64,000 nucleotides of DNA from Aquanectria penicillioides (lineage: Eukaryota; Ascomycota; Sordariomycetes; Hypocreales; Nectriaceae), in contig PYIU01000011.1 in the NCBI GenBank assembly GCA_003415625.1, positions 2,183,001 to 2,247,000 of the forward strand. The letters are read 5' to 3'. The notes beneath the pieces were generated by a model. The model searched no databases. It had not been told where the DNA came from and saw nothing but the letters and a program-made list of their open reading frames with translations. Both the position numbers and the translations under genes were made by a program. Position 1 is the stretch's first letter, and each line of letters starts with the position of its first letter. Below are positions 5,153 to 21,393 of the stretch, one piece after another.

Positions 5153-7090
5153 CTAGAATAGAATAAAACAGTCATTTAATAAAGCGATAATGCTTTCATG
5201 CCACCTCAAGTTACTGTTGCCCTCTGTCTTGCGTAGTTCCCAAACCTGTTGCACCACAATGGCTAGCTGTGTGCAGACACCTAACCCTGATCTGCTAGTA
5301 AATCCATCCAGACACGCTGATATACGCGTCTGTAGGTCTGGGTCGCGGGTTTCAAATGCAACAATGGCGATCGGCCACAGACTGGGACAAAATGGTCGCG
5401 TTGTACTGATTTGCAGAGATTCCATGTGAAGCAGGGCTTGCTCAACCAAGTCTTGGACTTCATCGAGAGGTACATCTCTTGCAGTCCGCTTTAGGTAAAT
5501 TAGCGCGGCAAAATAATACATATAGGCGTAGTGATAGACAAGATTTGTGTATTCTTGCCCGATCGTCAGCGTCGGCTTTTTTGGCACTGAAAGATAGAGC
5601 TCAAGCTCAAGACGATCTAGCTTGTCCGATATTGTTGATGGATCACTGGGACCAGTGGGATCTTGAAAAGGGCCGGCTTCTATTCTTATTGCATTGATTG
5701 AATGGATTGCTCTTAGCATTGGCTGGGGCAGACCATATGCCACATCCAAAACGTACTTCTCAGGCTGGAATGTTAGAGTAGATGAAAGGTCCCAACGGGC
5801 AGCATTGCGGTCTTCCGATAGGAGTTGTGCTTGGACAAGGGTCGCCATGGCGGTGAACAGTTGATAAATAACAGAGCTCGACTCAGTCTTGTACCAAAGC
5901 TGCATGTCGAAATGGTTAACCCACTCTAGGGCGCCTCGGAGATGAAGACGCCAAAATGGGGTAGGTACTGTGACGGCTTCATTGAGCACGCACATTAGCA
6001 GCGCGCCGAGGATTGATATGTATTGGCTCTCATCGTGAAAGTGCTGAATGTTCTGGCTCAAGTGAGCAATGCCCAAATTGTGATGTTCGAGGGCAACCTT
6101 CTCAAGACGTCGCCTGGGGTGGCTCGTATGTTGAGCAATTGACAGATGGAATGCAGATGCTGAGCACGTAAAGTGAAACAACGCCGTTGCCCCTGTCGAC
6201 GTGCCTGCAGTCGCCTGCGCTCCCGCGAGAGCAATAGGCATCAGGGCTGTGCGAAGGGGATTGTGAATTCCCGGCACTGGGTTTAAGCAGTCGCAGAGAT
6301 GGGATGCCCAGTGCTCTATTAATTGGCGTTGAAGACCCAAATCGGGTAAGACATCCAAATGACGCAAACCCACACCCGCAGCGATGGCGTTTGATTGGCG
6401 ATCCTCGGGGAGGGCTTCTGGTGTTGACCAGTGAGATTGTCGTTGAGACAGCCACGTATTAGTGGAATAGTCGATGCTCGGCTCATTAAATGGCAAGGGG
6501 GTAGATATCCCTTGAGTGTCGTTATCGTAGGCTTGGTTATCAACCGATTCGGCCTGGGTTGTAGATTGGTTGTCGGCTGGTGGGGATGAGATTCCCCTTG
6601 CTAACCCTTCACCCAGAGCCTTGTAAGAACGAACCAGCTCAGCACACAGTCCGCTAGTGGAAGGCGCTTCGTCATGGCCTATATCCGAACTGGGATCAGA
6701 TAGTGCGTTTGTAGGCGGCTCCAAAGAGTGATCTGAAGGCGTGGCACTCGCTTCGCCTCCAGGGACATCTTTCGAGGAGTCGGATTGGCCAGGGGGGTCC
6801 TGCTTCTCAGCTGGTTTCCTACCCTGAAACTCGATAACGCTGGTTGCGGGGATTCGCGTGGCGTTTCTCGAAGAAGACGTGGTCGAGTTGAAGTTGGACG
6901 GGCTCCGTGCCATGATCCATGACACCTTGACGCCATATCCCTGACAGCATAGCTTCAGGCGGCGACAGCGGTTGCAAACCGGTTTGGTCTCGTCGCACTT
7001 GACCTTCTTCTCCCTGCAGGTCCAACACCCGGAAAAGGTTCTCGTACGGAGCGGCCCCGCGTCAGCCTGGGAACGAGACCGTTTTGGCAT
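5153..7090 (-). CDS. Zn2Cys6 transcription factor (Fungal_trans_2 type)
   Basis: A single uninterrupted frame of 645 residues. The binuclear zinc cluster lies at about residues 20-50 (GCWTCREKKVKCDE, then CNRCRRLKLCC), preceded by a short basic tail. A long Ser/Pro-rich linker leads into a helical regulatory domain from about residue 230 to the C-terminus, of the kind classed as fungal-specific transcription factor domain 2. The ATG is the first in frame and sits about 20 residues before the cluster, as usual for this class. It has no introns, unlike most neighbours. It is probably nuclear and binds CGG-containing sites; its targets cannot be read from the sequence. The neighbouring bZIP and AtuA-like genes may belong to its circuit (inference). 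Confidence 0.9.
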   Translation of the reverse strand: MPKRSRSQADAGPLRTRTFSGCWTCREKKVKCDETKPVCNRCRRLKLCCQGYGVKVSWIMARSPSNFNSTTSSSRNATRIPATSVIEFQGRKPAEKQDPPGQSDSSKDVPGGEASATPSDHSLEPPTNALSDPSSDIGHDEAPSTSGLCAELVRSYKALGEGLARGISSPPADNQSTTQAESVDNQAYDNDTQGISTPLPFNEPSIDYSTNTWLSQRQSHWSTPEALPEDRQSNAIAAGVGLRHLDVLPDLGLQRQLIEHWASHLCDCLNPVPGIHNPLRTALMPIALAGAQATAGTSTGATALFHFTCSASAFHLSIAQHTSHPRRRLEKVALEHHNLGIAHLSQNIQHFHDESQYISILGALLMCVLNEAVTVPTPFWRLHLRGALEWVNHFDMQLWYKTESSSVIYQLFTAMATLVQAQLLSEDRNAARWDLSSTLTFQPEKYVLDVAYGLPQPMLRAIHSINAIRIEAGPFQDPTGPSDPSTISDKLDRLELELYLSVPKKPTLTIGQEYTNLVYHYAYMYYFAALIYLKRTARDVPLDEVQDLVEQALLHMESLQISTTRPFCPSLWPIAIVAFETRDPDLQTRISACLDGFTSRSGLGVCTQLAIVVQQVWELRKTEGNSNLRWHESIIALLNDCFILF

Positions 7091-8320
7091 GATATGCTGG
7101 GGTGATAGACAAGTGGAATGGGAATGAATTGGCCAAGCCCGTGGCTCTCATGTAGAATGTGAGATAGAGATCGTCAGGGGCTAATCTCTATTTGGCAGTT
7201 AAGCCCGACGAAGCTAGGAGCACCAACAGAATACGCATTACCAGAATGGGTGCGACTAAGCGACAGAGCAGAAAGCCCCACTAATAACCCAACAAGATTG
7301 GACAATGTAGCGAGGAGGGGTGGCTAGTATCATCCAAAGCTCGAACTAATAATGATGACAAGAACCCCTCAGGAGATTAATAATGATCTACTTATGGGCA
7401 TTTTGGGATTTCTTGGGAGCAACAGGTCACGGAAACAAGGATGAAGTGCTCATACTCTTCGTGGCAGTAGTGATCTCAAAATATTGCGTGTATGATGGGA
7501 GACCGAACGGGTGAGGATATTATAGTCTGTCGAAGCGTAGCTAGACATTTTGAAATGCCATCACCGTGGAGGGCTAAGGATGTCATAGTCCTGAAATGGC
7601 GGGGGAGTGCAAATACGTCAGATAGCTACCCCAGAGCTCCGAGGCGGAGTATCATGGACTATTTTAGTTATCTTATCACCATGCGCCCGAGCTTCATATT
7701 CATCCTTCATAAGAGACATAGGTGAAGTTGGCAATTCAGCATTTACACCTCGGGATTCTTCCCGGTTATCGAAGCTTTAAAATGGCGTCCTTTTGAGTCA
7801 ATAGTGATGCCAAGAATTCCATGGATGTCAATACGACTCATATTTCTCTTTAGGCGAGTGGCGGATAACAAAGTCCTGGATGTGGAGCTTGGGCAAGGTC
7901 TAGGGGATCATGAGTTGCCAGCTTCGTAGTTCAAATGACCCCCTTGAAACATTTCCATAGCAGAAATAGAGGCTATCAGAATGCAGGTTGCTTCACATGG
8001 GATATCCGAACGACGTATGTTTCAAATACGCTTAGGTTACGGCTAACCTTCTTCCATTTAGCTTACAAAGCAAAGGATAGTATGAGTTCCCAAATCCAGA
8101 GAGTTGTCATTAAATCATACATCTTTTCCAGGTTAGGAGTCTAGGTTTTAAAGAATATCCAAAGAAGTGCAATAGCCCATCACCAATTAGCTGTATTGTA
8201 AGACACAATACAAGTGCTACGTTGGCGATACTATCATAGTCCATGACTGTCTATAAAAACCTACTGAATTGCGTGGTCGTGGCAGGTATCAGTCTACGCC
8301 TCACTCGGAACACGTTCCGA
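7091..8320. other. intergenic, no supported gene
   Basis: 1.2 kb upstream of the Zn2Cys6 gene. Open frames are short and unrelated to any family I recognise. No RNA gene, array or transposon end was seen. Confidence 0.5.
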
Positions 8321-8856: not shown

Positions 8857-11800
8857 TCAGGGCTGATATAAACCTGTGCTTTCGCATCTCAATATCAAGA
8901 CGCGACCAGAAGCACATCCGAGTACGATAGTGGATCCCTTTACCCTTGAAACCCATGGTCTATATTGGTGTGGTAACCAAAGGAGTCTTTCTCCATTGTA
9001 AGTGATCCAAGACCGATCAAGGCTCAAACTGAAGCCTACATATGGCGACCGAACCCCAGCAGCTCGTAAATCGAGAGTGCCAATGTCGGTGTGTAAATGG
9101 TCAGTTTCTTGATCAAATTCCAGATCATCATGGATCTGACCAACGTCGAGCGTCGATAAACAACGCCCACTGTTTGGATCCCAAATCTTGACCGTCTTGT
9201 CATATGAAGATGAAGCTATATACCTGGAATCTCGAGACCAAGCCGCTGAAACGACCTGATGGTCGTGGCCTATGAGATTGAGGAACCAGTTACCTGTTCC
9301 TGGGTTCCATACTTTGATAGTCTTATCAGCCGACCCAGAGATAAGATGAGCTCCATCCCGGGACCAGGCAACACATGAAATCTCGCCACCATGCCCGTTC
9401 ATGGTTGAAACACATTGACGACTTCTTGTATCCCAGATCCTGGTATTACCGGCCGACGCCGTTGCGAGATGCGTGGAATCCGGTGACCAGGCGATTGGGT
9501 TGGGCGTATCTGGATGACCTCGCAGAGTTGCGAGACACTGGCCGCTCTGAGCATTCCAGATAATAACTGTACGATCCCTTGACGAAGATGCGATCTCACT
9601 GTTATCTTTTGACCAAGCCACTGAAATAACTCCGTTTGTGTGACCCCGCAGCGTTTGCTTGCATTGCCCAGTTGTCGTCTCCCAGATCCTCACTGTTTTG
9701 TCATAGGAAGCCGAAGCAAGCCAGGTAGACAGTTGAGACCAGGCTAACGAGCAAACTGAGGTATCATGGCCTTGTAAAGTGTGGATGCACTCCCCAGTTG
9801 TGGTACCCCATATCCTGATATCTCGAGTGCCAGAGGCTGAAGCAAGGCGCAACCCATCCCCTGCTAAGGCCAATGTACGGACTGAGGCGTCGTGGCTATC
9901 CATTTTCGACTTCAAGGTCCAGTCGTTCTCCATGATTGGCTTGGTAATAAGCCACTGTGGCTCGCACTTTCGATAGTCGTTCCTGATTATGCTATCTACT
10001 GGGCTGAATATTAGAGCTGAGGAGTATACTTGAAGAGGATGATTTTTAATTCCCACAGTGTGCCGTTGGAGGAATTGGGATGCGTCTCGCACTCTTGCAG
10101 TTAACAATGATGGTGAAGGGGTTAGTCGCTGCGTGGACATTAGCAAAGGAAACATTACGCAAAGGGCATCTTACATGAACCACGTTTTCAAGCATTGATA
10201 TGGCAGTAGTCGCTTCAGGTAGATGCCCCAAGAGATTAAGCGCCTCAAGCCAGTGCAGGAAGTGATTTTGCAGAAATTGATCGACCAAACCCCCATCCTG
10301 CAAGTAGCCTCCTGCGTTGCCATGAAGACGACACTTTTGCAAGTGATGAGCCCAGTATGTACAAAAATACGACATGTTTGCCAGTGGATCTGGCTGTGGT
10401 GCCTTCACCTGGTCGATGGAGACCCCCGGGGATCTAAGTGCATAAATGTCCTGGCGAAGTATTTGAGTCATGACTTGAATAGAAATTTGGACGATGTCGG
10501 AGTGTATCCCGAGTTCCCCTTCTTCAAATATTCGATGGGCCACTGATGTCAAGAATTCGCGTACGGACATGTGGAAAAAATGGATCGAATGCCCTCTCAA
10601 GGTCAGGAGTGAGCTGCAAGACTCAATAAGTTGCTTCGTCTTGTCGAAATCCAATTTGGCACCAGAGAAGTTGACAAACACCATTAACTCCTCCACTGTG
10701 ATGGGCCTGTACGCAACATAGGCAATCGACAAAATACGCTTGTAATTCTCGAATTCGGGTGAATGGCTGATTTGAGAGAAGACGTCAGCGTAAATGTGAC
10801 CTAGTCCTTGTGACATTTTCCTCATCATCTCTTGCTGGTCCGATGCATCCGTTCCTCTGAGCTCTTGACATAGTAATGTTACAAACAGGAAACAGTCATT
10901 TGAGAGTGACCAAATCTGCTCTTCGACATAGGCTCTTGTGTGATCGTCGTAGTGATTGGATCTTGCCAGTTGATTCACTTTGTATTTGATGTATTCCCTG
11001 ACCGCTGAACTGACAGGGTCTTTATTCAACTCCAATGAAAGGGTTCTCAGGCCGGCTATGGAACTCAAAGAAGCCTCGATGGCTGGTGAGTTGCGACTTG
11101 AGATAAGCCACTTAACCTTTGGAATCGTGGAAGATTGGCGAATGATGAGATCTAGAAGCAAATTTCGTTGCTCTAGACACTGATCAAGGGCATCGATGAT
11201 AATGTAGGTCCTCGGTAAGGTTGGAGCGTCTAAAATGCGTTCAAGAACACCTAAAAGAACTAACCAATCATCATCGATATTCTGAGTCAGGTTGATCTTC
11301 CAGAGTGCGTCCTCAATTCCCTGCCTCGCGAATGAGGGTTTCGGTTTAAGAAATTGATGAATCAAGCCACCCAAAACGTCTACGCCCTTGTTAAAACGAC
11401 TGTTGGTTTCTTGACAAAAGAAGAACGATAAGGCAACGTTATCCTCTTTGTTGCAAAGCCGCTCAAGTTGATCAACAAGATTACATAGAAGCATTGTTTT
11501 GCCTTTGCCAGGATCCCCGCGGATCCACAAAACCGGACTCTGCGGACTGTCACGCCACTGTTGAAATTCATTGTTATCGAGGACCCAGCGGTGCAAATCT
11601 GGTAGAAGACCCCCTTTGGATTCTTCAATGTGGCTCTTTTGAATCCAAGGGTCGACTAGGTTTAGTTGAGTCAAAGCTCTACTGACTAGATCTGAATCTG
11701 ATTTGACGTTAGTGCTGGAGATCGAAATGAGAATGAATATGGCTATGTTTAAGCTTACCAAGTTCGAGAACGGTCATCCGGGCATATTGATGCACAATAG

Positions 11801-14800
11801 CCTTGATAGCGGCTGCAGCGGTTTTGACAGCATATGTCTCCCACACTAAACGTGTAGGAACAGCGTGGCCATCAGCATAGTCACACACGCCGTTGACTGT
11901 GATCCAAGGAAAGTCTGACGAAAAACCAATTTTTTCTCTGGCAAAGGCAATGACGCCGTGTTGTTGAGCGATGCGATCACGATCGCTCCCAAGCCTGAAC
12001 GATACATCTCCTGATGCTATGCTACCACAGAAAATTTTGGGTGTTTGAAGGTCTCTTGAATCGGATTCCAACTGGCCTTTCTTTTTCCGCTCCTCTCGAA
12101 CTATTAGGGAATAATCCTCACACCCAAGTTCAGCACAAGGGGTTGAAGCAGCATCCTCACAGATGCTCCCGGGCTCGCTGCCGCAGATTGAGCAATGCGA
12201 CGATCTTCGGTGTTTGTGAGCATATGTATCCGTAAATAACTTGTCTTCGGCAATTCCAGGATAGGTAGAACCTGCTCGAAGCTGCTGGTCTTCGTGGAGA
12301 ATGACGAGTTCAAGAGACATAGCGGTCATGCCTTCCAACAAGGATGCGACGGATTCCGCTTTCAGGGTAGCCATGAACTTCGTAAGTTCTTCGGTTGACT
12401 CCTTGGGATTGGAAATGAGAAACGGCCTTGAACTTAGAGACCGGGATGGCTCAAGTTCAAGATGATCCGTGCTAATGATCACATCTCCTAACCGAAGATG
12501 ACTCGTAAATCCGCTTGGCACGCCCCCACATATTCCCATCAGAATCACAAGCTTTAGGTCTGGGAAACTATGTCGTAGTCCAGCGTCTGATATACCGTAT
12601 GGGTCTTCATCCATACTAGTAGTCAGTGCTATCACGACATTGCACTTGGAAATCCGACCAATAGAGTAGAGATTTGAATCCCTATCGGATTTTCCAATTT
12701 GATCATCTCCACCGAGGTATTCATCTAGAAGCCGAACCATGGCGTTGTGCTGATGGACGAGCCTGCAGATGATTGCAATATCGAAGTCATGCGGATGGAA
12801 ATTACGACTGTAAGGAATTCGGGGTCTGAGGATCTGTTGTTGCGCCGTACCAAGATCCGTGGGAATCGGTGTGGCTGAGGTAATCCTCTTGCGATTTTCT
12901 TTCCTATTCCCCGCATGATCAATGGATAGTTCAAGCATTCTGCATCGAGCCTCTCCTTCTTGTGCAACACTTTTCAAAGCTTCGATTTCTTGTGTTGGCA
13001 AAGCGGTCATGAATGTGATAAAAAAGCCGCCTAGGCGCTTTTCGATAGCTTGAAGTCTCTGCCGCCAATCGATGAACTTCGCAGCCACTCTAAGTGAGTT
13101 TATGGTGTTGGTAGAATACAGGTCAATAATAGACCGTATTTGGAATTCTGTTATTAGCATGTATAATGTCGTAAGGTGCTGTATAGCTTCAACCCTTAAG
13201 TCTTCGTCCATTGCCAACACATGCCATTCTAGGGCGACAAAGTACGGCATCATCAATGTGACGTATACAAACCCATCGTAAATGCTGGGGCCTACGAGTC
13301 TTGGCTTTTTTAGCAAGGGTAGTGCAATAGAGACGCCTGCCATAACAATCGAGGCGGGGACAGTAGTCTCTAAAGCATCCTTGGTGAATTTCTCAAGTAA
13401 TTGGTTGGTCACTTTGGTCGCTTGTGAGTCGGACACATCCTCCTGGCACGTAACCACATGCCCTAATAATGTGGTTCCGACATTACTTTCGGTGATGTGA
13501 TCCAGAGCAAGATCGACTATTCTCTCAAGCTGCGCTTGAAGTGAGTTCGTATCGCCTTGAGGGATTTCCCCTGGAACATTCTGGGTATCATCAACTGCAA
13601 CTCCTCTCACCGCTCCTTGTTGAGAGCCTTTCTTGACTCAGCAAATGTCTAGAAACGATGCATGGGTAACCAAACACTCACCTGTAATTAGCGCTCTTGA
13701 CAGAAGATCCTCATATTTTTGGGTTAGTTCAGGCTCTGCAGATACAAGACCAGCATATGCTTTGTGCCATAGAGAGGCTGACACCATCGTCGAATGTGGG
13801 TAGCAAATGGATCGTTGATGGTATGAAAAGAGTGCCATTCCAAATGAGTTCCAATTTGAGAAACATTGTATTTTTTTCCCCGTCCGAGTTTTAACACTAC
13901 TTTGTTGTGGTCGGTTTTTATCCATGGTACGGTCATGGACACGGATAGGTAAATCTAGATCCGAAACCCCTTCATTGATGAATGGTAGAATGGCATCCGG
14001 TTTCCCGACGAGAAGAAGGATAGCAAACATTTGCTTCCGCGATGCCATTTTCTCGTCTGCATAACCAGGTACGCGATAGGGGAGGGTATCAAACACCTGG
14101 GCTGTGCAATACTCGACTATGGAATCCTTGTCGCTATCCCGGATTCGAGTGACTGACCCAATAAGGTGGATAAAGTAGCTCTGAATGATGGTGCGAGTGA
14201 TAAGAACTTCTTGCTTTTCCAGAGGTATGAAGCTACTGTCATCTCCGCGGTCAGTCTCGACACGAGATATTTGAAGAGCGTCAAGCAGTGCTTCGCCTTC
14301 ACTCCAGCGCTCAAAGTTTCCAGGCGGCACGTTTAGATTATTGATAAAGTCGTGAATATTCTCCATGTGCGCAATTACCGGATCATGCCCGCTGTCCGCG
14401 TCTGGATAGAAGCCGGCCCACTCTGCAGTTCTCAGCTCGTCATTTGTATAGAGGTTGTAATCAAACGTCGTGTCGTCTGGTATTACAGGGATTGTCTCTT
14501 CAATCAAATGCTCCGTAGGTGGTACCTGCTCTCCTATCGCATCACGCTCACTCATCAGGTCTGTGAGGGTGCTTCGCTCTGCTGAGTCGTCCAATTCGTT
14601 AATGCCAGCTGAACTGTCAAAATCCTGAGCATCTCCATCTATCAACGCGTCGGGCAACAGCCGTAACGTGAGAAACGCAAGAAACTGCAAGTGTGAGGCG
14701 ATGTGCCTTGACATTTCGTTTTGGCGATTGAAAGAAGCTGGCTTCTCATCCGTACTCAATGCTGTCTCGTCATTTTCGAATTTGACGTCGCCGCTGAATT

Positions 14801-16436
14801 TTACCCCTTTCTTGGCCTTGTTTAGATGCGTGACTACCTCGGATGTGCCCTCTGCGGTGTTATCCAGTGTAGTATCAGATGCGACCAGTTTTGGCTCCGG
14901 TGGTTTCTTTTGCGTCTTCTCCAACGGTAGTTGGCAGAGGATGCACTTTTCAACCGAACGGACCAAGTAAACCCCCTTGCCAGTAGCACGGGAAATAGTT
15001 GTCAAATGGTGTCCTTGTAAGTGATCGTCCAGGGCGTCGTAACTCGGGAACATCGCCGCATCTTTGTGAACCCTTTTGTCAATGTTGCATCTCCACGGAA
15101 GTGGTTCATGGATGCACCATATCCAATCCATGCCGTGCTCATTCTCCATGTGTGATGCCCAATCTCTATACCCAGAAAAAGTGGGAATGGATTGGCAGGC
15201 CGATGAAAGGCACACGTAGGATTGGAGATCGCTGTCAACATGATGTCTTCATTGCCGTCAGTAGGTGTAGCAGGGATATGCAAGCTTCAATACTCACCTC
15301 CACCAGTTTCTGTCGTCGTAGTTGTGTCTCTCATGCATCTTTCGGCAAAACAGACAACGTGCCGGGGATCCGTCGGCATTTTCCTTCGGAGCAGGAGGGT
15401 ATTGGTGCTTGCTGATTTGTACAGAAGAGGCATTTCCTCGGTATGCTGGTATACGCCTAGTTGTTTCGAACGGGGCTATGGAGGGGAGTTTGGAGGTTGT
15501 AGTTGAATGCTCCGTCACAGAGTGGGAGACGATCTTTCTACTTTGCACAATTATCCTGATCTGGTTATCATTTGCATCGAAACCTTTGTTCGGAACCCGG
15601 GGGTCTTTGCTGAATGTTTGGGTCGGCTCAGACGCATCTAGACCTTGGTCTAATGTTTTTTGTTCCTCGTCATTACTGCGGTAATCAGCTTGGAGCTTCT
15701 GGTCATGCGACTTCCAGTATAAAAGTCTAGCAAATCTGTGCGCCATGGACTTGGCTAAGTGTTGGCACAGGCTATCTGGAGCCTTAGGATATAGTGATCT
15801 CACGGCAAGAGAAGCCTCAGTTTCGAACAAGAGCAGCTCTTTCTGCCGCTTGACAGTAAAGACTTTGATTCGGGCTGCTAGTGTGGAAGTTGACGACTGT
15901 CGTATAGATATGGCGAGCCTATCTAGCTGGCCCTCGGCTTCGTGGATGCCATCAAACACGACGCCATAAAACTCGCTGTCGCTGTATCCGCTGGTATTGG
16001 ATTCAGAATCGTCACCACATGAACTCCATTCGGAGTCTTCTCCAGATACACATTCTGCGGGCAGCACTATGAGAGGTTCAGCAGGACCTTATGAGCGTAA
16101 CCAAGCTGGCCACATACACTGTACAAGGTTTGTTCGTAACATATCAAGAGCTAGAAGAACGACATCGCGATACGCGGGATGGCGCTTCAGCCGTTCATCC
16201 AGGTTGGCCTTGACAGACGCAAAGACGCCCAGGTAGGCTGCCCAAGCGCTGAATCTTGTCTGCATTTCCTCTAGAACCTGCCTCTGCATGACAGATCCGT
16301 GCTCAGCTTCAAGCGCAGCAATTGCCCGCACAAATAGCCCGTCGCATTCACTTGCAATATTGAAAATCGGCATCTGGTCATCCTTTGGCACATCGAAGTG
16401 TGGCGTAGAGGAGTTAGCTCGCGACTGTTGCATCAT
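8857..16436 (-). CDS. NLR-like STAND protein: NACHT_N-like, PNP_UDP, NACHT, six WD40 repeats
   Basis: Six exons (16436-16118, 16066-15298, 15231-13682, 13615-11759, 11697-10175, 10128-8857) sum to exactly 2,430 codons; introns are 46-66 nt. Residues 1-880 form a helical region plus a Cys/His-rich stretch (CLFC near 348, CILC, a RHIASH segment). About 915-1095 resembles the NACHT_N domain (MAGVSIALPLL). About 1150-1498 is a nucleoside phosphorylase-like (PNP_UDP) domain with GICGGVPSG and LRLGDVIIS. NACHT follows: Walker A GDPGKGKT near 1560, Walker B YIIIDALD near 1665. Six WD40 repeats occupy roughly 2076-2330, then a short conserved tail. In this family ligand binding by the repeats drives oligomerisation, and the N-terminal effector signals cell death or incompatibility. 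The repeats differ from each other, so they are not of the near-identical, fast-evolving type. The order NACHT_N then PNP then NACHT is unusual. A divergent S8 protease gene shares its promoter. Confidence 0.85.
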
Positions 16437-16901
16437 GATGACACCAAAAGCGCCTCATGCGCCACTAACCGCAACGGCCGTTACACGTCGGGGAATGAAG
16501 CGAGTATCTGGGCTTTGTATTCGCAACAAGGCCAGAATGAAAGCCTTTAGAATGATCTTGGAGAGCTTGTCTGTTAAATGCACTCTGGATCAAGCTTGTT
16601 CCGGTATCTCAAGTCATCTTGCTTGCCTAAGCAAGGCTGTCCAATCGATGAGAACTCTGTGAGTGTCACAAATTGCACATTCTGCATGAGCTGAACAAAT
16701 TCCATCAGCCACTTAAACTCTGAACCCCGCTCGCGTTTACTTTAGGAATGGTGCCGTGATCAGGCTGAGGACTTCGCTGATAATGCCCTCGTGTCAACAG
16801 CGACATCAACATACAATTTCCTTCACACTACGAGCAGACGGCCTCTAGCTGCCAGCACGTTGTCGGATTCTCCCATGATGACTGCTAGTCAATAAAACAA
16901 G
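16437..16901. promoter_or_regulatory. divergent promoter region, NLR / subtilase
   Basis: A 465 bp spacer between the NLR start (minus) and the subtilase start (plus). The two genes must draw their promoters from this stretch, so co-expression is likely (inference). No specific operator was recognised. Confidence 0.5.
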
Positions 16902-19900
16902 ATGATGCAAGAAACCGGAGATATACCGGGAATTATAGGGGAGGCAACGACCATCCGGGATAGCGTCGAGTGGGCGATCCTCGGTGGGCTTCATGGACAA
17001 GTTCGTCGACTCGCTGACATCGAATACCAAAACACAAAATCCATCAGCAAAAGGTCCAAACGAAGGAAGAAACAACTCCTCCAGGACCTGAACGAATGGA
17101 AGCAGCTCAATATTCAGATGCGCGAAGCGTTGAGTCGGTCAGACCATGGCGTCCTACTTGACCTCGAAGCGGAGGTCGGTACTCCCGCTATAGTGTCCGC
17201 TCAGAAGGCCAAACTAGCGCTGCGAAACCTTTGCAACTGTCTGGAACCCGTGGTAAATGTAGATGGCCTCATCCTCTTCCAGGCAGTTCGTCAGCGGAGT
17301 CAAGCTGGGAGCGGTGGATATCCCAACCTAGTCAGCCTCATCGACCGTCTGCAATCACCAGAAAACCCGACCGAGAAATTTCAACTGGTTTCTCGATCAA
17401 GCGAAAGCAGAGCCTTGTTTATTCTGGAACCAGACTACGATATCAAGCCATTGAGAAGAGACGTAACTGCCTTTAACAGCTTCCTTCAAAAGATTCAGCT
17501 CTCCAGTGCGTCATTGGCAGAGTTGACAACCCCATCTTTACCTCAGCCGACTATTCCAACCGCTCCAAGTTTGACGTATGAGGGATTTGGTAGTCGTTTT
17601 CGACAGCAAGCTGTGGCTGCGTTCCGGGTCATATTCTCAAATATCACAAAGTGCAACCGCAAAGGAAAATCAGCACACAATGTCCTTCTCCAGCTCCCAT
17701 TCGTTCAAGACGTCATATCGAACGATGCTTCGGTCGCGAGCTATCAACTGCACATGTTTCTTGGAAACTGCACGGCTGCATCATGGCAAGAGACTCGGGT
17801 GAAGACGATGTTGTAAGTTCTCTTTGACTCGGTGAAATTTAAACAGAAACAGTCATTAACACTGCTTCTCTTCAAAAGAACAGGAACACCATGCTGGAGG
17901 CCGTCTCTATGCCGGGCAATTGAATCAGCACAGGATAGGAAAGTCGGATTAGAACTTCACATTCCAGACAGCAAAGAAGCTCTGCATTGTGGTGATTTGG
18001 GAGTGCAGGTTCCCCTGCCAGGACGTTGTCCACCTAAAAAAGACTACGATGGCCAGCTTCCACATAAGCTACTCCGTGAGTTGATCGATGCTGGAGTTCT
18101 CAACCAAGCATTGACTCCATCCCAACGCTTCAAACTGCGAAATACCCAACCATTCAACCATGCACAGAGGAAATCTCTCGCAATCAAGCTGGTATTGGGT
18201 TTGTTGATATCTCTTGAGTCAGGGTACGTTATCAAAACATGGGATGCGGCACAAATCTGGTTCCTCGCCGCAGAGGGCGGAGAAGAACTACGGGATTTAC
18301 CATACGTTTTGTGTGAGATTGCCAGCGAGGCAGACCGGAACCTATTATCACTCCCTAGCTTGGATTCACTCGCAATGGGACCGCCACCACCATGTCCCGT
18401 TTTCACTCTCCTGGCGAAGGCCTTGCTGGAAATCGCCGCGGGAGATTGTTCTTTCCTGGAGATGACTGGCCCTAGTGAAGTAAATCAAACGAAATCAAAC
18501 GAGCTAAGAGATCTCATTGGCGAATATGTGGAGGATTATGTTAGCAATGCCATGGGCCCGTCAGTTGCTTCACTGACGCTGCTCAGTGCAGCCCAAGCAT
18601 GCCTGTTATTTCACGAACAGCACTGGGGCAGGTTTTGTTGCTGCAGAACAGCCCCAGAAGAACACATCCCGTTAATATTTTAGAGGTTGCGCACCATCTG
18701 ATTTACAACGAGATTCTCTGCAAACTGGACCCAAGTCTACCACCACTTCCGTCCAATACTGAGGGAGAACAAGTCTCTCCTGACGATAATCAGATTCCAG
18801 AGGGACTGGTAGAAGAGAAACCAGAGATCGTGAGTCCGCGGGTTCATGAGATTGGGCATGCCGAGAACGATGGTCCTGCTGTCATGATTGAGTTATTTGA
18901 CGACGAACTTGTGGTAGATAGCAAGTCCAGGTGAGTCAACTAGTAGCTGTCATCCGGGGTTTAGGCACTGACCGTCAACTTGAAGTGAAACGACCTGGGC
19001 CACTAAATTCTTCACACAATTGGAGGAATTTCGAACCTCATTCGGAGCCATGCCGGCAGCGCATTCCAGGGGTACCAGGCGAGTGAGGATTGCTGTTATC
19101 GACACCGGAATTGATTTCAATAACCCATTGATACAAGGGATATGCAGTTTGAGCCCAAGCGCCATCAGCCACGACCGGTGTCGTAGCTGGGTCGGGAGTG
19201 AGGATGACTTTCATGACAGCATCGGCCATGGCACCAACTGTGCCTACCTAGCTCATAAGGCTGCTCCAGATGCTGACATTTACGTGGCGAAAGTATTCAG
19301 TGATACGAAGTTCAAGCTGTACCAGGCCGAACACATAGCGCATGTAAGCCGACCTTTGCAAAGCTATGAGTATGATGGATGTCACTTCCTTGGAATACTC
19401 GGCGCGGCTTGACTTTCTTGGACTAACGAATTCACTTTAGGCCATCAAATGGGCTCTTGATGTTTGGGACGTGGACATTATATCCATGTCTTTTGGATTG
19501 CAGCCTCCAAAATTGCCAGAGCAAAGAACCGAGTGGCTTAGAATACGTTCAGCAATCCGAGACGTTATTGATGAGGCGGGGCACAGAATCATATTTGCAG
19601 CTGCTTCAAACGGTGGCTTGAATGCGCCTCGCACGTTTCCTGCGACTTGTCGCAATGCTATTTGTGTGCATGCCTCCGACGGGAAAGGCAATGACGGCCG
19701 TATCAACCCTAAAGGAGAAACGGACGAAAATTTTATGACTCTTGGTGTTGCAGTCGAGCTGTTCGAGGCGGGCAAGCCAGTATATAAATCTGGGACCTCG
19801 TTTGCAACTCCGATAGCCGCAGGAATTGCGGCGAATATTTTGGACATTTCCCAAAGGACCACAATGCTTCCCGATGAAGTGAAGCACCAGCTGAAGAGGG

Positions 19901-20061
19901 GTGATGGGATGCGTACCATGTTCCACTTGATGTCGATATACGACTCTAGAACAAAATACCGCTACGTGGCCCCTTGGTGTCACTGGCAAGATAGCTGGAG
20001 AGCGACCATGGGTGACAGTGTATGGTTGGATATTGAGAATAAGGTCTTGGGTTTGGTTTAG
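16902..20061 (+). CDS. DUF7580-like / subtilisin (peptidase S8) protein, het-Q2-like
   Basis: Exons 16902-17812, 17879-18930, 18986-19343 and 19441-20061. The first ~600 residues are helical and resemble fungal DUF7580 proteins found upstream of subtilases. The C-terminal ~330 residues are an S8 domain with all catalytic parts: Asp at 19101-19103 in AVIDTGID, His at 19227-19229 in GHGT, the oxyanion Asn in AAASNGG, and Ser at 19798-19800 in SGTSFATP. No signal peptide is seen, so it is probably cytosolic. The four exons total 2,942 nt, which is not a multiple of three. The frame breaks around 18,630 and can be repaired either by one missing base there or by a 47 nt intron (18605-18651) with a weak GTTATT donor, giving about 964 residues. 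It is divergent from the NLR and lies 480 bp upstream of the gasdermin-like gene. Function as an activating protease is inferred from this context. Confidence 0.75.
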
Positions 20062-20541
20062 GTGGTAATGGTTAATCTTCCATAAAGTAGAGTGTTCAAC
20101 TACTGGTGCGAGGAGAGACTTCTTAGCCGGTTGCTGTACTGATGGCTTAGCTTGCATAGATGATAAATGTTGGGGTATCCGGAGTTCCGTACACTATTGA
20201 GGCTAGATTGCCGTCCCTACACTTCTAGTGCTTCCCGTGAGGAAAACCAAATTTCTGGCCGCCCTGATTTTGGCATTAGGCATTGGAACAGCTTCGACAT
20301 CTGATGATTCATCAGCTTGTCACATGACTATTGCGAGTAAGACGCTTCAATCCTTTGTCCAACCAGGCACCCAATCGCCAATCTTGATCCCCGCCACACT
20401 GCAGAAGCTCAGCTAGCGGTCATCAGCTTCAGCCTGATTCGGATGGAACAATTCACTCCCGGCTTTGTACCTTTCCCTTCTCAATTCAATACCTCGAAGC
20501 ATCCAATTTTCCCTCAAACACTCCATCCTATATAGGCCAAC
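20062..20541. promoter_or_regulatory. spacer and promoter of the gasdermin-like gene
   Basis: 480 bp between the subtilase stop and the next start on the same strand. A CTATATAGG element lies 13-20 bp before the ATG at 20542, and pyrimidine-rich DNA precedes it, as is common near fungal transcription starts. Confidence 0.35.
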
Positions 20542-21393
20542 ATGTCAGTGAATCCGAAGCCGTCATATCACCTCTGTCCCGACTTCGCCATTGCGCCCCC
20601 GCCCGATGGACATCTGACGCTCGGGTCTATCCTCAAGAACCTCAACGTCGACGGCGTGTCGCACCCGCTCAATGTGAATGACGTCGCAGACATCCCAAGC
20701 GATGCCATCTTTCCTCGCGGGGAGCCGCACACCATCACGGGGTTCTCTCGGACGCTACGTAGCCTCAGATCAATTGAAGGAAGCATCTGGGCCAAACTCT
20801 TTGGTCCCGATGGCCCAGGTGGCAAGCTGAGCTTTCTGCGACAAAGGTCCGATGAGGAGGTTCTCACTGTCGATTCGCTCCTTACCCGCTACTTCATTCC
20901 TAGCGAGGAATACATGAAGAAGGCACTCGAAGCCCCCGGCGTAGTAATGTTTGTTCGGGTCACGAAGATGAAGGTGCCGATATACCTGGTTACTGGTATA
21001 AAGGTCGCAGTTGGTGCGAAACTCTCAATGGCCAAGGCAAATAACACGAAGGTTTCTGGCGAAGCTGCCGCCACGGATCCCAATACAGGCACATCTGGTG
21101 GAGTAAGCGGTGGCTATTCTGGAGAAAGCTCATCGTCCATGGGTTTTGATGGCTCCAAGCCATTTGTCTTGGGGATTCGCGTACGCAAGATTTGGTGGGA
21201 AAAAGACAGCGGGCGACTGACCTCGGACAACATTGCAGGTAGCGTGTTGGACGATTCTGATCGGGATGATGACAGTATTTTTGTCAATGTCAACTTCGAT
21301 GACAACGCCCCTGATGGTGTTAAGTTTGGCAAGACATTCGAAGAGGGAGAGGATTACACAGGGCCCGAGCCTTGCCACTGGATTCTACCGTAG
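20542..21393 (+). CDS. candidate fungal gasdermin-like protein (het-Q1/rcd-1 type)
   Basis: A single exon of 283 residues with no signal peptide and no hydrophobic transmembrane helix. Pattern: a short strand with LGSIL at residues 27-31; alternating hydrophobic/polar strands at about 134-163, including IYLVTGIKVAVGAK; a Gly/Ser-rich loop at 183-200; another strand FVLGIRVRKI at 208-217; an acidic linker at about 226-246; and a short C-terminal tail. Position and alternation of these strands recall the pore-forming N-terminal fold of gasdermins, and the length is close to that of Podospora HET-Q1 (known to be 278 aa). HET-Q1 is released by the subtilase HET-Q2, which removes a short C-terminal piece; here an S8 gene lies directly upstream. 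The assignment is by pattern and context, not by alignment. Otherwise it is a conserved fungal hypothetical protein. Confidence 0.5.
   Translation: MSVNPKPSYHLCPDFAIAPPPDGHLTLGSILKNLNVDGVSHPLNVNDVADIPSDAIFPRGEPHTITGFSRTLRSLRSIEGSIWAKLFGPDGPGGKLSFLRQRSDEEVLTVDSLLTRYFIPSEEYMKKALEAPGVVMFVRVTKMKVPIYLVTGIKVAVGAKLSMAKANNTKVSGEAAATDPNTGTSGGVSGGYSGESSSSMGFDGSKPFVLGIRVRKIWWEKDSGRLTSDNIAGSVLDDSDRDDDSIFVNVNFDDNAPDGVKFGKTFEEGEDYTGPEPCHWILP

What the first reader, a model, noticed from the sequence alone, without database searches (positions are those of the whole stretch)
8857..21393. Candidate NLR - subtilase - gasdermin cell-death locus
Three neighbouring genes fit a known fungal logic: a pore-forming gasdermin-like protein kept inactive until a subtilisin-like protease clips it, with an NLR as sensor. 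Seen in sequence: a complete NACHT/WD40 NLR, a divergent gene with a full S8 Asp/His/Ser triad, and directly after it a 283-residue beta-patterned protein with no signal peptide. Established: Podospora HET-Q2 (subtilase) activates HET-Q1 (gasdermin-like), and fungal gasdermin genes are often next to protease genes. Inference: this locus is a module of that kind, here with a PNP-bearing NLR in place of an NLR fused to the protease.
Basis: partly seen in the sequence, partly recalled or inferred. Interest (0 to 1): 0.88.

Follow-up and report, generated by a model that had tools for sequence, protein, structure and literature searches.

The report
Fungal gasdermin, protease and swapped-sensor locus
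This stretch of fungal DNA holds a likely suicide kit: a pore-forming gasdermin, the protease gene beside it that probably switches it on, and a back-to-back partner gene whose front half recurs at similar kits in the same genome while its back half is exchanged, like an interchangeable detector.

Summary
The 283-aa ORF (20542-21393) is a fungal gasdermin by profile (RCD-1 2.3e-9, HET-Q1 6.9e-5), predicted fold and 76 relatives. The gene before it (16902-20061) encodes DUF7580 plus an S8 subtilase with complete catalytic residues. Gasdermin-S8 pairing is already known; here 6 of the 7 gasdermin loci found genome-wide have S8 within 4 kb.

The NLR claim needs correcting. Its NACHT-WD40 part was not seen to travel with the pair (0 of 67 relatives share a contig with a gasdermin hit). 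But it is the C-terminal half of a larger gene whose N-terminal module (16436-13787) does. A genome-wide search finds 7 module copies: 6 lie head-to-head, 0.3-0.6 kb from a DUF7580 gene, and the seventh lies beside gasdermin pieces. An eighth sits at another gasdermin-DUF7580-S8 locus. All 5 such loci found carry the module, with different C-termini: NACHT_N-PNP-NACHT-WD40, RhoGEF, NACHT, annexin, kinase-PNP.

Best reading: a cell-death locus in which a partner with exchangeable sensor or decoy domains licenses a DUF7580 protease that cuts the gasdermin. The pair is known; no such partner was seen in the paper listings and passages examined. Function is untested.

The parts
20542..21393 (+). 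Fungal gasdermin, 283 aa, single exon
21250..21327 (+). Variable, low-confidence linker (residues about 237-262) with a conserved aromatic-Asp-Asp spot at F252-D254; predicted site of cleavage (inference)
   Evidence: Low pLDDT 233-261; column counts: F or Y in 50 of 65 rows at 252, Asp 57 of 65 at 253, Asp 62 of 65 at 254; the HET-Q1 pore chain aligns only up to profile position 238
16902..20061 (+). DUF7580-subtilase (HET-Q2-like) gene; exons 16902-17812, 17879-18627, 18684-18930, 18986-19343, 19441-20061; the second intron (GC-AG) is uncertain
17589..18620 (+). DUF7580 domain
19080..19893 (+). Peptidase S8 domain with Asp, His, Asn and Ser
   Evidence: model of a homolog (P0083) matches subtilisins
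8857..16436 (-). Partner gene: N-terminal module fused to NACHT_N-PNP-NACHT-WD40 (gene model from ORFs; several introns, those of the module not resolved)
13787..16436 (-). Conserved N-terminal module of the partner: helical-looking RF..W..YLGVFA....LD.RL part and zinc-finger-like Cys/His motifs
13038..13775 (-). NACHT_N domain (Goodbye-like according to PMC9815663)
11772..12809 (-). PNP-like (nucleoside phosphorylase superfamily) domain; below Pfam cut-off but with clear relatives
10175..11697 (-). NACHT (NPHP3_N) NTPase region with P-loop GDPGKGKT
8857..10128 (-). WD40 repeat region
16437..16901 (.). 465-bp shared intergenic stretch between the two divergent genes (between first ATG codons)

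Best explanation
A regulated cell-death locus of three genes. The gasdermin is made inactive, held by a short C-terminal tail after a flexible linker. The DUF7580-subtilase cuts that linker, and the freed N-terminal domain makes pores and kills the cell. The subtilase is controlled by the divergent partner gene next to it: its conserved N-terminal module couples to the DUF7580 half, and its exchangeable C-terminal domain (here NACHT_N-PNP-NACHT-WD40) senses a disturbance. Shown: gasdermin fold, intact S8 residues, conserved pairing, repeated head-to-head module with swapped C-termini. Inferred: cleavage, pore formation, coupling between module and DUF7580, sensing role.
For: Gasdermin identity. 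Pairing in this genome: S8 within 4 kb of 6 of the 7 loci; random placement gave at most 3 in 50,000 trials. Pairing elsewhere: 8 of 76 gasdermin hits share organism and contig length with one of 92 protease hits, some with consecutive gene numbers. Module: 7 copies found genome-wide, 6 head-to-head with a DUF7580 gene at about 0.30-0.56 kb between first Met codons, the seventh beside gasdermin pieces; an eighth at the C2 locus by similarity to copy F. C-termini differ. Outside this genome: P0074 (Myotisia) joins a gasdermin N-terminus with the module, P0162 (Purpureocillium) joins S8 with the module, P0007 (Trichoderma) joins the zinc-finger part with a gasdermin. Known biology: HET-Q2 is thought to cut HET-Q1 at F238 of 278 (PMC10989679, passages).
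Against: No expression, cleavage or death data. The module also accompanies DUF7580 genes with no gasdermin found nearby (C12: DUF7580-S8; C3:1683k: DUF7580-PNP), so it tracks DUF7580 at least as much as the gasdermin. The loci may be old copies of one cluster, so the adjacencies are not independent events. The protease needs a GC-AG intron to be intact. Partner synteny in other species could not be searched directly. DUF7580 hits weaker than the six best (C2 excepted) had no module copy. The NLR carries candidate effector domains of its own (NACHT_N, PNP) and could act alone. At C2 the gasdermin lies between protease and partner.
Confidence: 0.55

Rival explanations
1. Plain two-gene module: DUF7580 is itself the sensor, the subtilase cuts the gasdermin, and the divergent gene is an unrelated NLR neighbour.
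For: The published picture is a two-gene cluster of gasdermin plus multidomain sensor-protease (PMC10197012, passages). NLR-type sequences were not seen with the pair (0 of 67), and NACHT proximity is explained by local density.
Against: The partner's N-terminal module is head-to-head with 6 DUF7580 genes, beside a seventh at C2, and joined with gasdermin or S8 in predicted proteins of other species.
Confidence: 0.25
2. The cluster was duplicated as a block and the partner is a hitch-hiker kept by a shared promoter; its varied C-termini reflect ordinary domain shuffling in fungal zinc-finger/NLR families.
For: The same order recurs, and the module family has weak members elsewhere (C2:1573062 and C10:3793419), so a search from this copy favours copies most like it.
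Against: Module copies are only 25-33% identical to this one, yet linkage is kept; it is also kept where S8 is replaced by PNP and where no gasdermin was found.
Confidence: 0.15
3. The NLR gene is a self-contained death receptor (NACHT_N as helical membrane effector, PNP as enzyme) and the gasdermin pair is a separate system beside it.
For: NACHT_N is Goodbye-like and overlaps MLKL-like N-termini, and PNP is a common NLR effector (PMC9815663, passages).
Against: One reading frame joins the start of NACHT_N to the module that faces the protease.
Confidence: 0.1
4. The protease is a decaying gene and the locus is no longer functional.
For: No GT-AG intron restores the frame near 18605-18683 with conserved residues kept; the closest relative (Ilyonectria P0077) has Tyr at the catalytic His and internal gaps; a broken sister locus exists at C8:4753k.
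Against: One GC-AG intron with a branch-point-like motif and TTTTAG acceptor keeps the frame; the other three introns are GT-AG, and the S8 exons are open with all catalytic residues.
Confidence: 0.15

Closest known systems
HET-Q1/HET-Q2 of Podospora anserina (fungal gasdermin and its S8 protease)
   Same: Gasdermin of similar length (283 vs 278 aa) with linker and short tail; an S8 protease partner; profile match to the HET-Q1 pore chain.
   Different: HET-Q2 is a 388-aa protease (PMC10989679, passages); no DUF7580 is mentioned there. HET-Q1/Q2 is a non-self recognition system. Here the protease has a ~600-aa DUF7580 half and a divergent partner.
Gasdermin/Q2L gene clusters of fungi (about 80% of fungal gasdermins lie near a protease gene; PMC10197012, PMC12881547, PMC10989679, passages)
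   Same: This pair is a member: S8 protease with extra domains, next to a gasdermin. [quoted passage not shown]
   Different: In the passages read, the sensor parts (WD40, ANK, TPR, NLR, kinase-like) are in the protease protein itself; a separate head-to-head partner with swapped C-termini is not described there.
nwd2/het-S type NLR-effector clusters (PMC12881547, passages)
   Same: NLR gene beside a pore-forming effector gene.
   Different: That link is an amyloid motif; no amyloid motif was searched for here, and a protease stands between.
Plant head-to-head sensor/helper NLR pairs with integrated decoys (PMC12258605 passages; PMC5067614 abstract start in a listing)
   Same: Divergent pair, one member with a conserved part plus swapped extra domains, including a second copy of an RGF3-type RhoGEF.
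   Different: The executor here is a DUF7580 protease, not an NLR; the partner has NACHT at only 2 loci.

Membership tests
Fungal gasdermin (RCD-1/HET-Q1) | Sequence homology to the gasdermin pore-forming domain | tested here: met
   Profile hits 8jyz, 8jyx, 8jyy, 9uv9
Fungal gasdermin (RCD-1/HET-Q1) | Gasdermin fold | tested here: met
Fungal gasdermin (RCD-1/HET-Q1) | Short C-terminal tail after a cleavable linker | tested here: inconclusive
   Low-confidence stretch 233-261, then short strands; cleavage itself not tested
Fungal gasdermin (RCD-1/HET-Q1) | Pore formation and cell death | not testable with these tools
   Needs expression
HET-Q2-like (Q2L) protease | S8 domain with complete catalytic residues | tested here: met
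   PF00082 on two ORFs; D, H, N, S read
HET-Q2-like (Q2L) protease | Gene within 10 kb of a gasdermin gene | tested here: met
   480 bp between protease stop and gasdermin ATG; recurs at 6 of 7 loci, 6 of 8 with the broken one found later
HET-Q2-like (Q2L) protease | Cuts the gasdermin | not testable with these tools
   Needs co-expression
NLR with protease as N-terminal domain | Protease and NACHT in one protein | tested here: not met
   They are on opposite strands in separate genes
Fungal NLR (NWD type) | NACHT with P-loop plus repeat domain | tested here: met
   PF24883 3.2e-32, PF05729 2.1e-13, WD40 3.4e-59; GDPGKGKT read
Fungal NLR (NWD type) | Annotated N-terminal effector domain | tested here: met
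   NACHT_N 70.8 bits over cut-off 30; PNP below cut-off
Paired receptor with integrated decoy (plant-type) | Head-to-head arrangement | tested here: met
   6 of 7 directly found module copies
Paired receptor with integrated decoy (plant-type) | Both members are NLRs | tested here: not met
   The executor is DUF7580-S8 or DUF7580-PNP
Paired receptor with integrated decoy (plant-type) | Swapped domains act as bait for a pathogen factor | not testable with these tools
   No ligand known

The most novel reading that the evidence does not exclude
Fungi use a split receptor. A partner protein with a conserved N-terminal module and exchangeable C-terminal sensor or integrated-decoy domains (NLR, RhoGEF, annexin, kinase-PNP) is encoded head-to-head with a DUF7580 executor (protease or PNP) and licenses it; in the protease form this leads to gasdermin cleavage and lytic death. 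This would be a fungal counterpart of plant sensor/helper pairs feeding a pyroptosis-like pathway.
Probability: 0.42. Interest if true: 0.86.

Novelty: new variant of a known kind. Interest (0 to 1): 0.7.

Why it matters
What stimuli activate the sensors of fungal gasdermin pathways is called a major open question in PMC12881547 (passages). If the partner is the trigger, each C-terminal domain points at what is being watched, and a set of paralogous pairs in one genome makes the question directly testable by deletion and domain swap in harmless laboratory fungi.

Tried and rejected
NLR as conserved third gene: rejected as stated. 0 of 67 NLR relatives share a contig length with a gasdermin hit (the script held 66 of the 67 lengths; the missing one, P0224, was compared by eye and does not match). 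That protein search began at NACHT_N, scored only the 7,988 candidates sharing most words, and so says nothing about the module. NACHT near 3 of 7 gasdermin loci within 10 kb gave P 0.011 against whole-contig placement but 0.06 against placement within 300 kb; 1 of 7 within 5 kb. Not claimed.

PNP genes near gasdermins (2 of 7 within 10 kb, P 0.0066 whole-contig, 0.025 local): looked at after the fact, not claimed.

Gasdermins beside the other DUF7580-S8 genes (C12: L029 and L032; C8:4208k: L030) and beside the DUF7580-PNP gene (L031, held only up to C3:1684400): none found by profile. The same scan unexpectedly found gasdermin pieces at C8:4753k (L033).

CHAT proteases near gasdermins: none of the 11 hits lies within 10 kb of the seven. 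The seventh gasdermin (C1:8148862) has no S8 hit nearby; of four ORFs scanned there, three gave F-box, NAD-binding and amidohydrolase families and one gave nothing.

Annexin: the Pfam scan of the L022 ORF gave E 4.5e-12, but the genome-wide annexin search did not list that place among its 12 matches; the two disagree and the scan of the ORF is taken as the better look.

Kinase-PNP at C2: PNP is by similarity to the window's PNP (35%; 37%); Pfam listed only the kinase for that ORF, and the kinase-PNP ORF overlaps the zinc-finger ORF in another frame.

Fold of DUF7580: the model of homolog P0083 was matched only in its S8 part, so DUF7580 stays untested; a kinase-like fold was suspected only from the order of strands and helices. 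Naming the module AcuF-like is from memory, and Pfam did not support it. A weak HeLo match was seen in one copy only (L020, E 2.8e-4, 21.2 bits under the 23.2 cut-off).

Literature: the listings (titles and abstract starts; several capped, e.g. 10 of 1,488 and 6 of 388 papers shown) showed no paper on a head-to-head partner; two searches found no paper with the word DUF7580. Passages were read in five papers, no paper in full. The primary paper on gasdermin-protease clusters (doi 10.1073/pnas.2109418119) is not held, so the partner may be mentioned there.
Full report
WHAT IS THERE. The window is G000:C3:2183001-2247000 of an unnamed 53.8-Mb, 13-contig genome. The best-matching named proteins come from Ilyonectria, Fusarium and Trichoderma, so a hypocrealean fungus is likely (inference); the species was not determined. 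Three genes matter: a partner gene on the minus strand (16436 down to 8857), a DUF7580-subtilase gene on the plus strand (16902-20061) and a gasdermin gene on the plus strand (20542-21393).

THE PROTEASE. Its ORFs hold DUF7580 and Peptidase_S8. Asp, His, Asn and Ser are all present. Homologs from other fungi align over most of the length, and the model of one of them (P0083) has a subtilisin as its C-terminal part. Three of four introns are GT-AG. The fourth is not clear: of 67 GT-AG or GC-AG pairs of 40-150 nt that keep the frame open, one, the GC-AG pair 18628-18683, also keeps both flanking conserved stretches; it gives an open 961-aa frame. A frame break cannot be excluded without RNA. The nearest relative, in Ilyonectria, shares organism and contig length with the nearest gasdermin relative, yet has Tyr at the catalytic His.

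THE PAIR IS NOT CHANCE, AND IS KNOWN. A genome-wide protein search gives 7 gasdermin loci (all 7 also match the profile). Six have an S8 gene within 4 kb; there are about 25 S8 genes (my merging of the 30 exon hits). Random placement on the same contigs never exceeded 3 of 7 in 50,000 trials. An eighth, broken gasdermin locus found later (below) has no S8 found in the 8 kb held. Elsewhere, 8 of 76 gasdermin hits share contig length and organism with one of 92 protease hits. Examples: SGCOL_001369/001368, V8F33_012603/012602, N0V84_011133/011131, V8C40DRAFT_231594/231593. Reviews state that about 80% of fungal gasdermins lie near a protease gene, mostly S8 (passages). So this part is a new member of a known kind.

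NACHT_N, PNP-like, NACHT and WD40 parts are real. Its relatives (best 39% identity over 58% of the query) sit on contigs of other lengths than the gasdermin hits (0 of 67; 66 in the script and one by eye). None of the 67 combines NACHT_N with PNP as here, by BLASTP at 1e-5. NACHT hits lie within 10 kb of 3 of 7 gasdermin loci; local NLR density gives that often enough (P 0.06). Taken as an NLR, the third gene was not seen to be conserved.

THE PARTNER MODULE. Comparing the minus-strand ORFs with the DNA around the other gasdermin loci gave an unexpected result. The stretch 16454-13641, upstream of and in frame with the start of NACHT_N, has relatives at other loci. It starts with a helical-looking part (RF..W..YLGVFA....LD.RL) and continues with Cys/His motifs that look like zinc fingers (weak Pfam matches only). 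A genome-wide search with the first exon gives 7 copies. Six lie head-to-head with a DUF7580 gene, with about 296-564 bp between first Met codons (starts are approximate). The seventh (C8:4754342) has no DUF7580 nearby, but lies about 0.5 kb after gasdermin pieces on the same strand: two ORFs matching profile positions 3-35 and 113-184 in order (E 1.1e-8 and 6.6e-7; positions). That locus looks broken or incomplete. An eighth copy, at the C2 gasdermin, is found through copy F (8.9e-7 for the first part, 4.8e-8 for the zinc-finger part). The six strongest DUF7580 loci all have a head-to-head copy; the weaker ones, other than C2, showed none, and the one whose DNA I held (C8:4208k, L030) showed none by profile.

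LOCUS TABLE. A, window: gasdermin + DUF7580-S8 + partner ending in NACHT_N-PNP-NACHT-WD40. B, C1:8070k: gasdermin + DUF7580-S8 + partner ending in WH_RGF3-RhoGEF, with CNH in a following ORF. C, C1:7515k: gasdermin + DUF7580-S8 + partner ending in NACHT. D, C10:3519k: gasdermin + DUF7580-S8 + partner with an annexin match (one search did not list it). E, C12:3155k: DUF7580-S8, no gasdermin found, partner followed by a weak kinase match (E 0.0014, below cut-off). F, C3:1683k: DUF7580-PNP in place of S8, no gasdermin found, partner with no named C-terminal domain. G, C2:2071k: gasdermin between DUF7580-S8 and a partner followed by kinase-PNP. H, C8:4753k: gasdermin pieces and a module piece, no DUF7580 or S8 found in the 8 kb held. 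Two gasdermin loci showed no module: C1:649k (TPR and S8 in neighbouring ORFs) and C1:8149k (no S8). In B, C and D the zinc-finger part and the C-terminal domain are in one ORF. In A one ORF runs from the zinc-finger part to the first 28 positions of NACHT_N (E 0.018), which continues in the next ORF. In G the joint is between overlapping ORFs. The RGF3 domain has a second copy elsewhere (C8:3175420), so one of the two is a duplicate, as a decoy would be.

OUTSIDE THIS GENOME. The 235 proteins collected for other reasons were scanned with a profile of the eight module copies (the copies themselves match it by construction). It finds two: P0074 (Myotisia, E 3.3e-14), a gasdermin N-terminus joined to the module, and P0162 (Purpureocillium, E 6.8e-12), S8 followed by the module and a SAM domain. 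P0007 (Trichoderma) joins the zinc-finger part to a whole gasdermin by BLASTP. These may be fused gene models of neighbours or true fusions; either way the parts lie side by side. Shuffled module sequences gave 0 hits at 1e-5 for 250 queries.

HOW IT MOST LIKELY WORKS. Partner and DUF7580 protease are made together from one divergent promoter region. At rest the protease is held inactive. A change sensed by the partner's C-terminal domain is passed through the module to DUF7580, the protease is freed, cuts the gasdermin linker, and pores follow. Each step after the anatomy is inference. That the module goes with DUF7580 even where S8 is replaced by PNP or where no gasdermin was found argues that module and DUF7580 are the coupled pair. 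The odds given to the rivals overlap, because some of them can hold together with the best reading.

LIMITS. The module search starts from one sequence, so more distant copies can be missed, and 6 of 7 is a statement about close copies. The loci may descend from one duplicated cluster. The partner could not be searched in other fungal genomes. PNP in the NLR is under Pfam's cut-off. The main paper on such clusters is not held, and PMC12881547 already speaks of two- or three-gene clusters for such pathways, so lack of a report in print is only as good as the searches listed under Tried and rejected.

Noticed in passing
G000:C8:4752977-4754557 (L033:1478-3058): Gasdermin pieces followed by a module piece on the same strand, with no DUF7580 or S8 found in the 8 kb held; looks like a broken or incomplete sister locus.
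   Followed up: partly
G000:C3:1682894-1686567 (L031): A DUF7580-PNP gene with a head-to-head module partner and no gasdermin found: the executor domain after DUF7580 is swapped (S8 to PNP).
   Followed up: partly
L018:5742-9844 (C1:8075792-8079894): An RGF3-type RhoGEF (WH and RhoGEF in one ORF with the zinc-finger part; CNH in a following ORF); a second RGF3 copy is at C8:3175420.
   Followed up: partly
P0162 (Purpureocillium lavendulum, 1620 aa): One predicted protein with S8, then the module, then SAM and a long C-terminal part that resembles Hsp70-like ATPases by eye (not supported by the Pfam scan).
   Followed up: partly
   Followed up: no
window 11709-13787 (-): NACHT_N and PNP-like domains in tandem in one NLR; 0 of 67 relatives showed both.
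   Followed up: partly
G000:C1:8148862-8149458: A gasdermin-like gene with no S8 or CHAT hit nearby.
   Followed up: partly
L023:5382-7084 (C1:644381-646083): NACHT and WD40 pieces with an in-frame stop a few kb from the TPR-S8/gasdermin pair at C1:649k; no module found there.
   Followed up: partly
window 5156-7147 (-): Zn2-Cys6 transcription factor with Fungal_trans_2 domain beside the locus. The other nine ORFs scanned were five enzymes or enzyme-like proteins (an aspartyl protease among them), one permease and three without a match.
   Followed up: no
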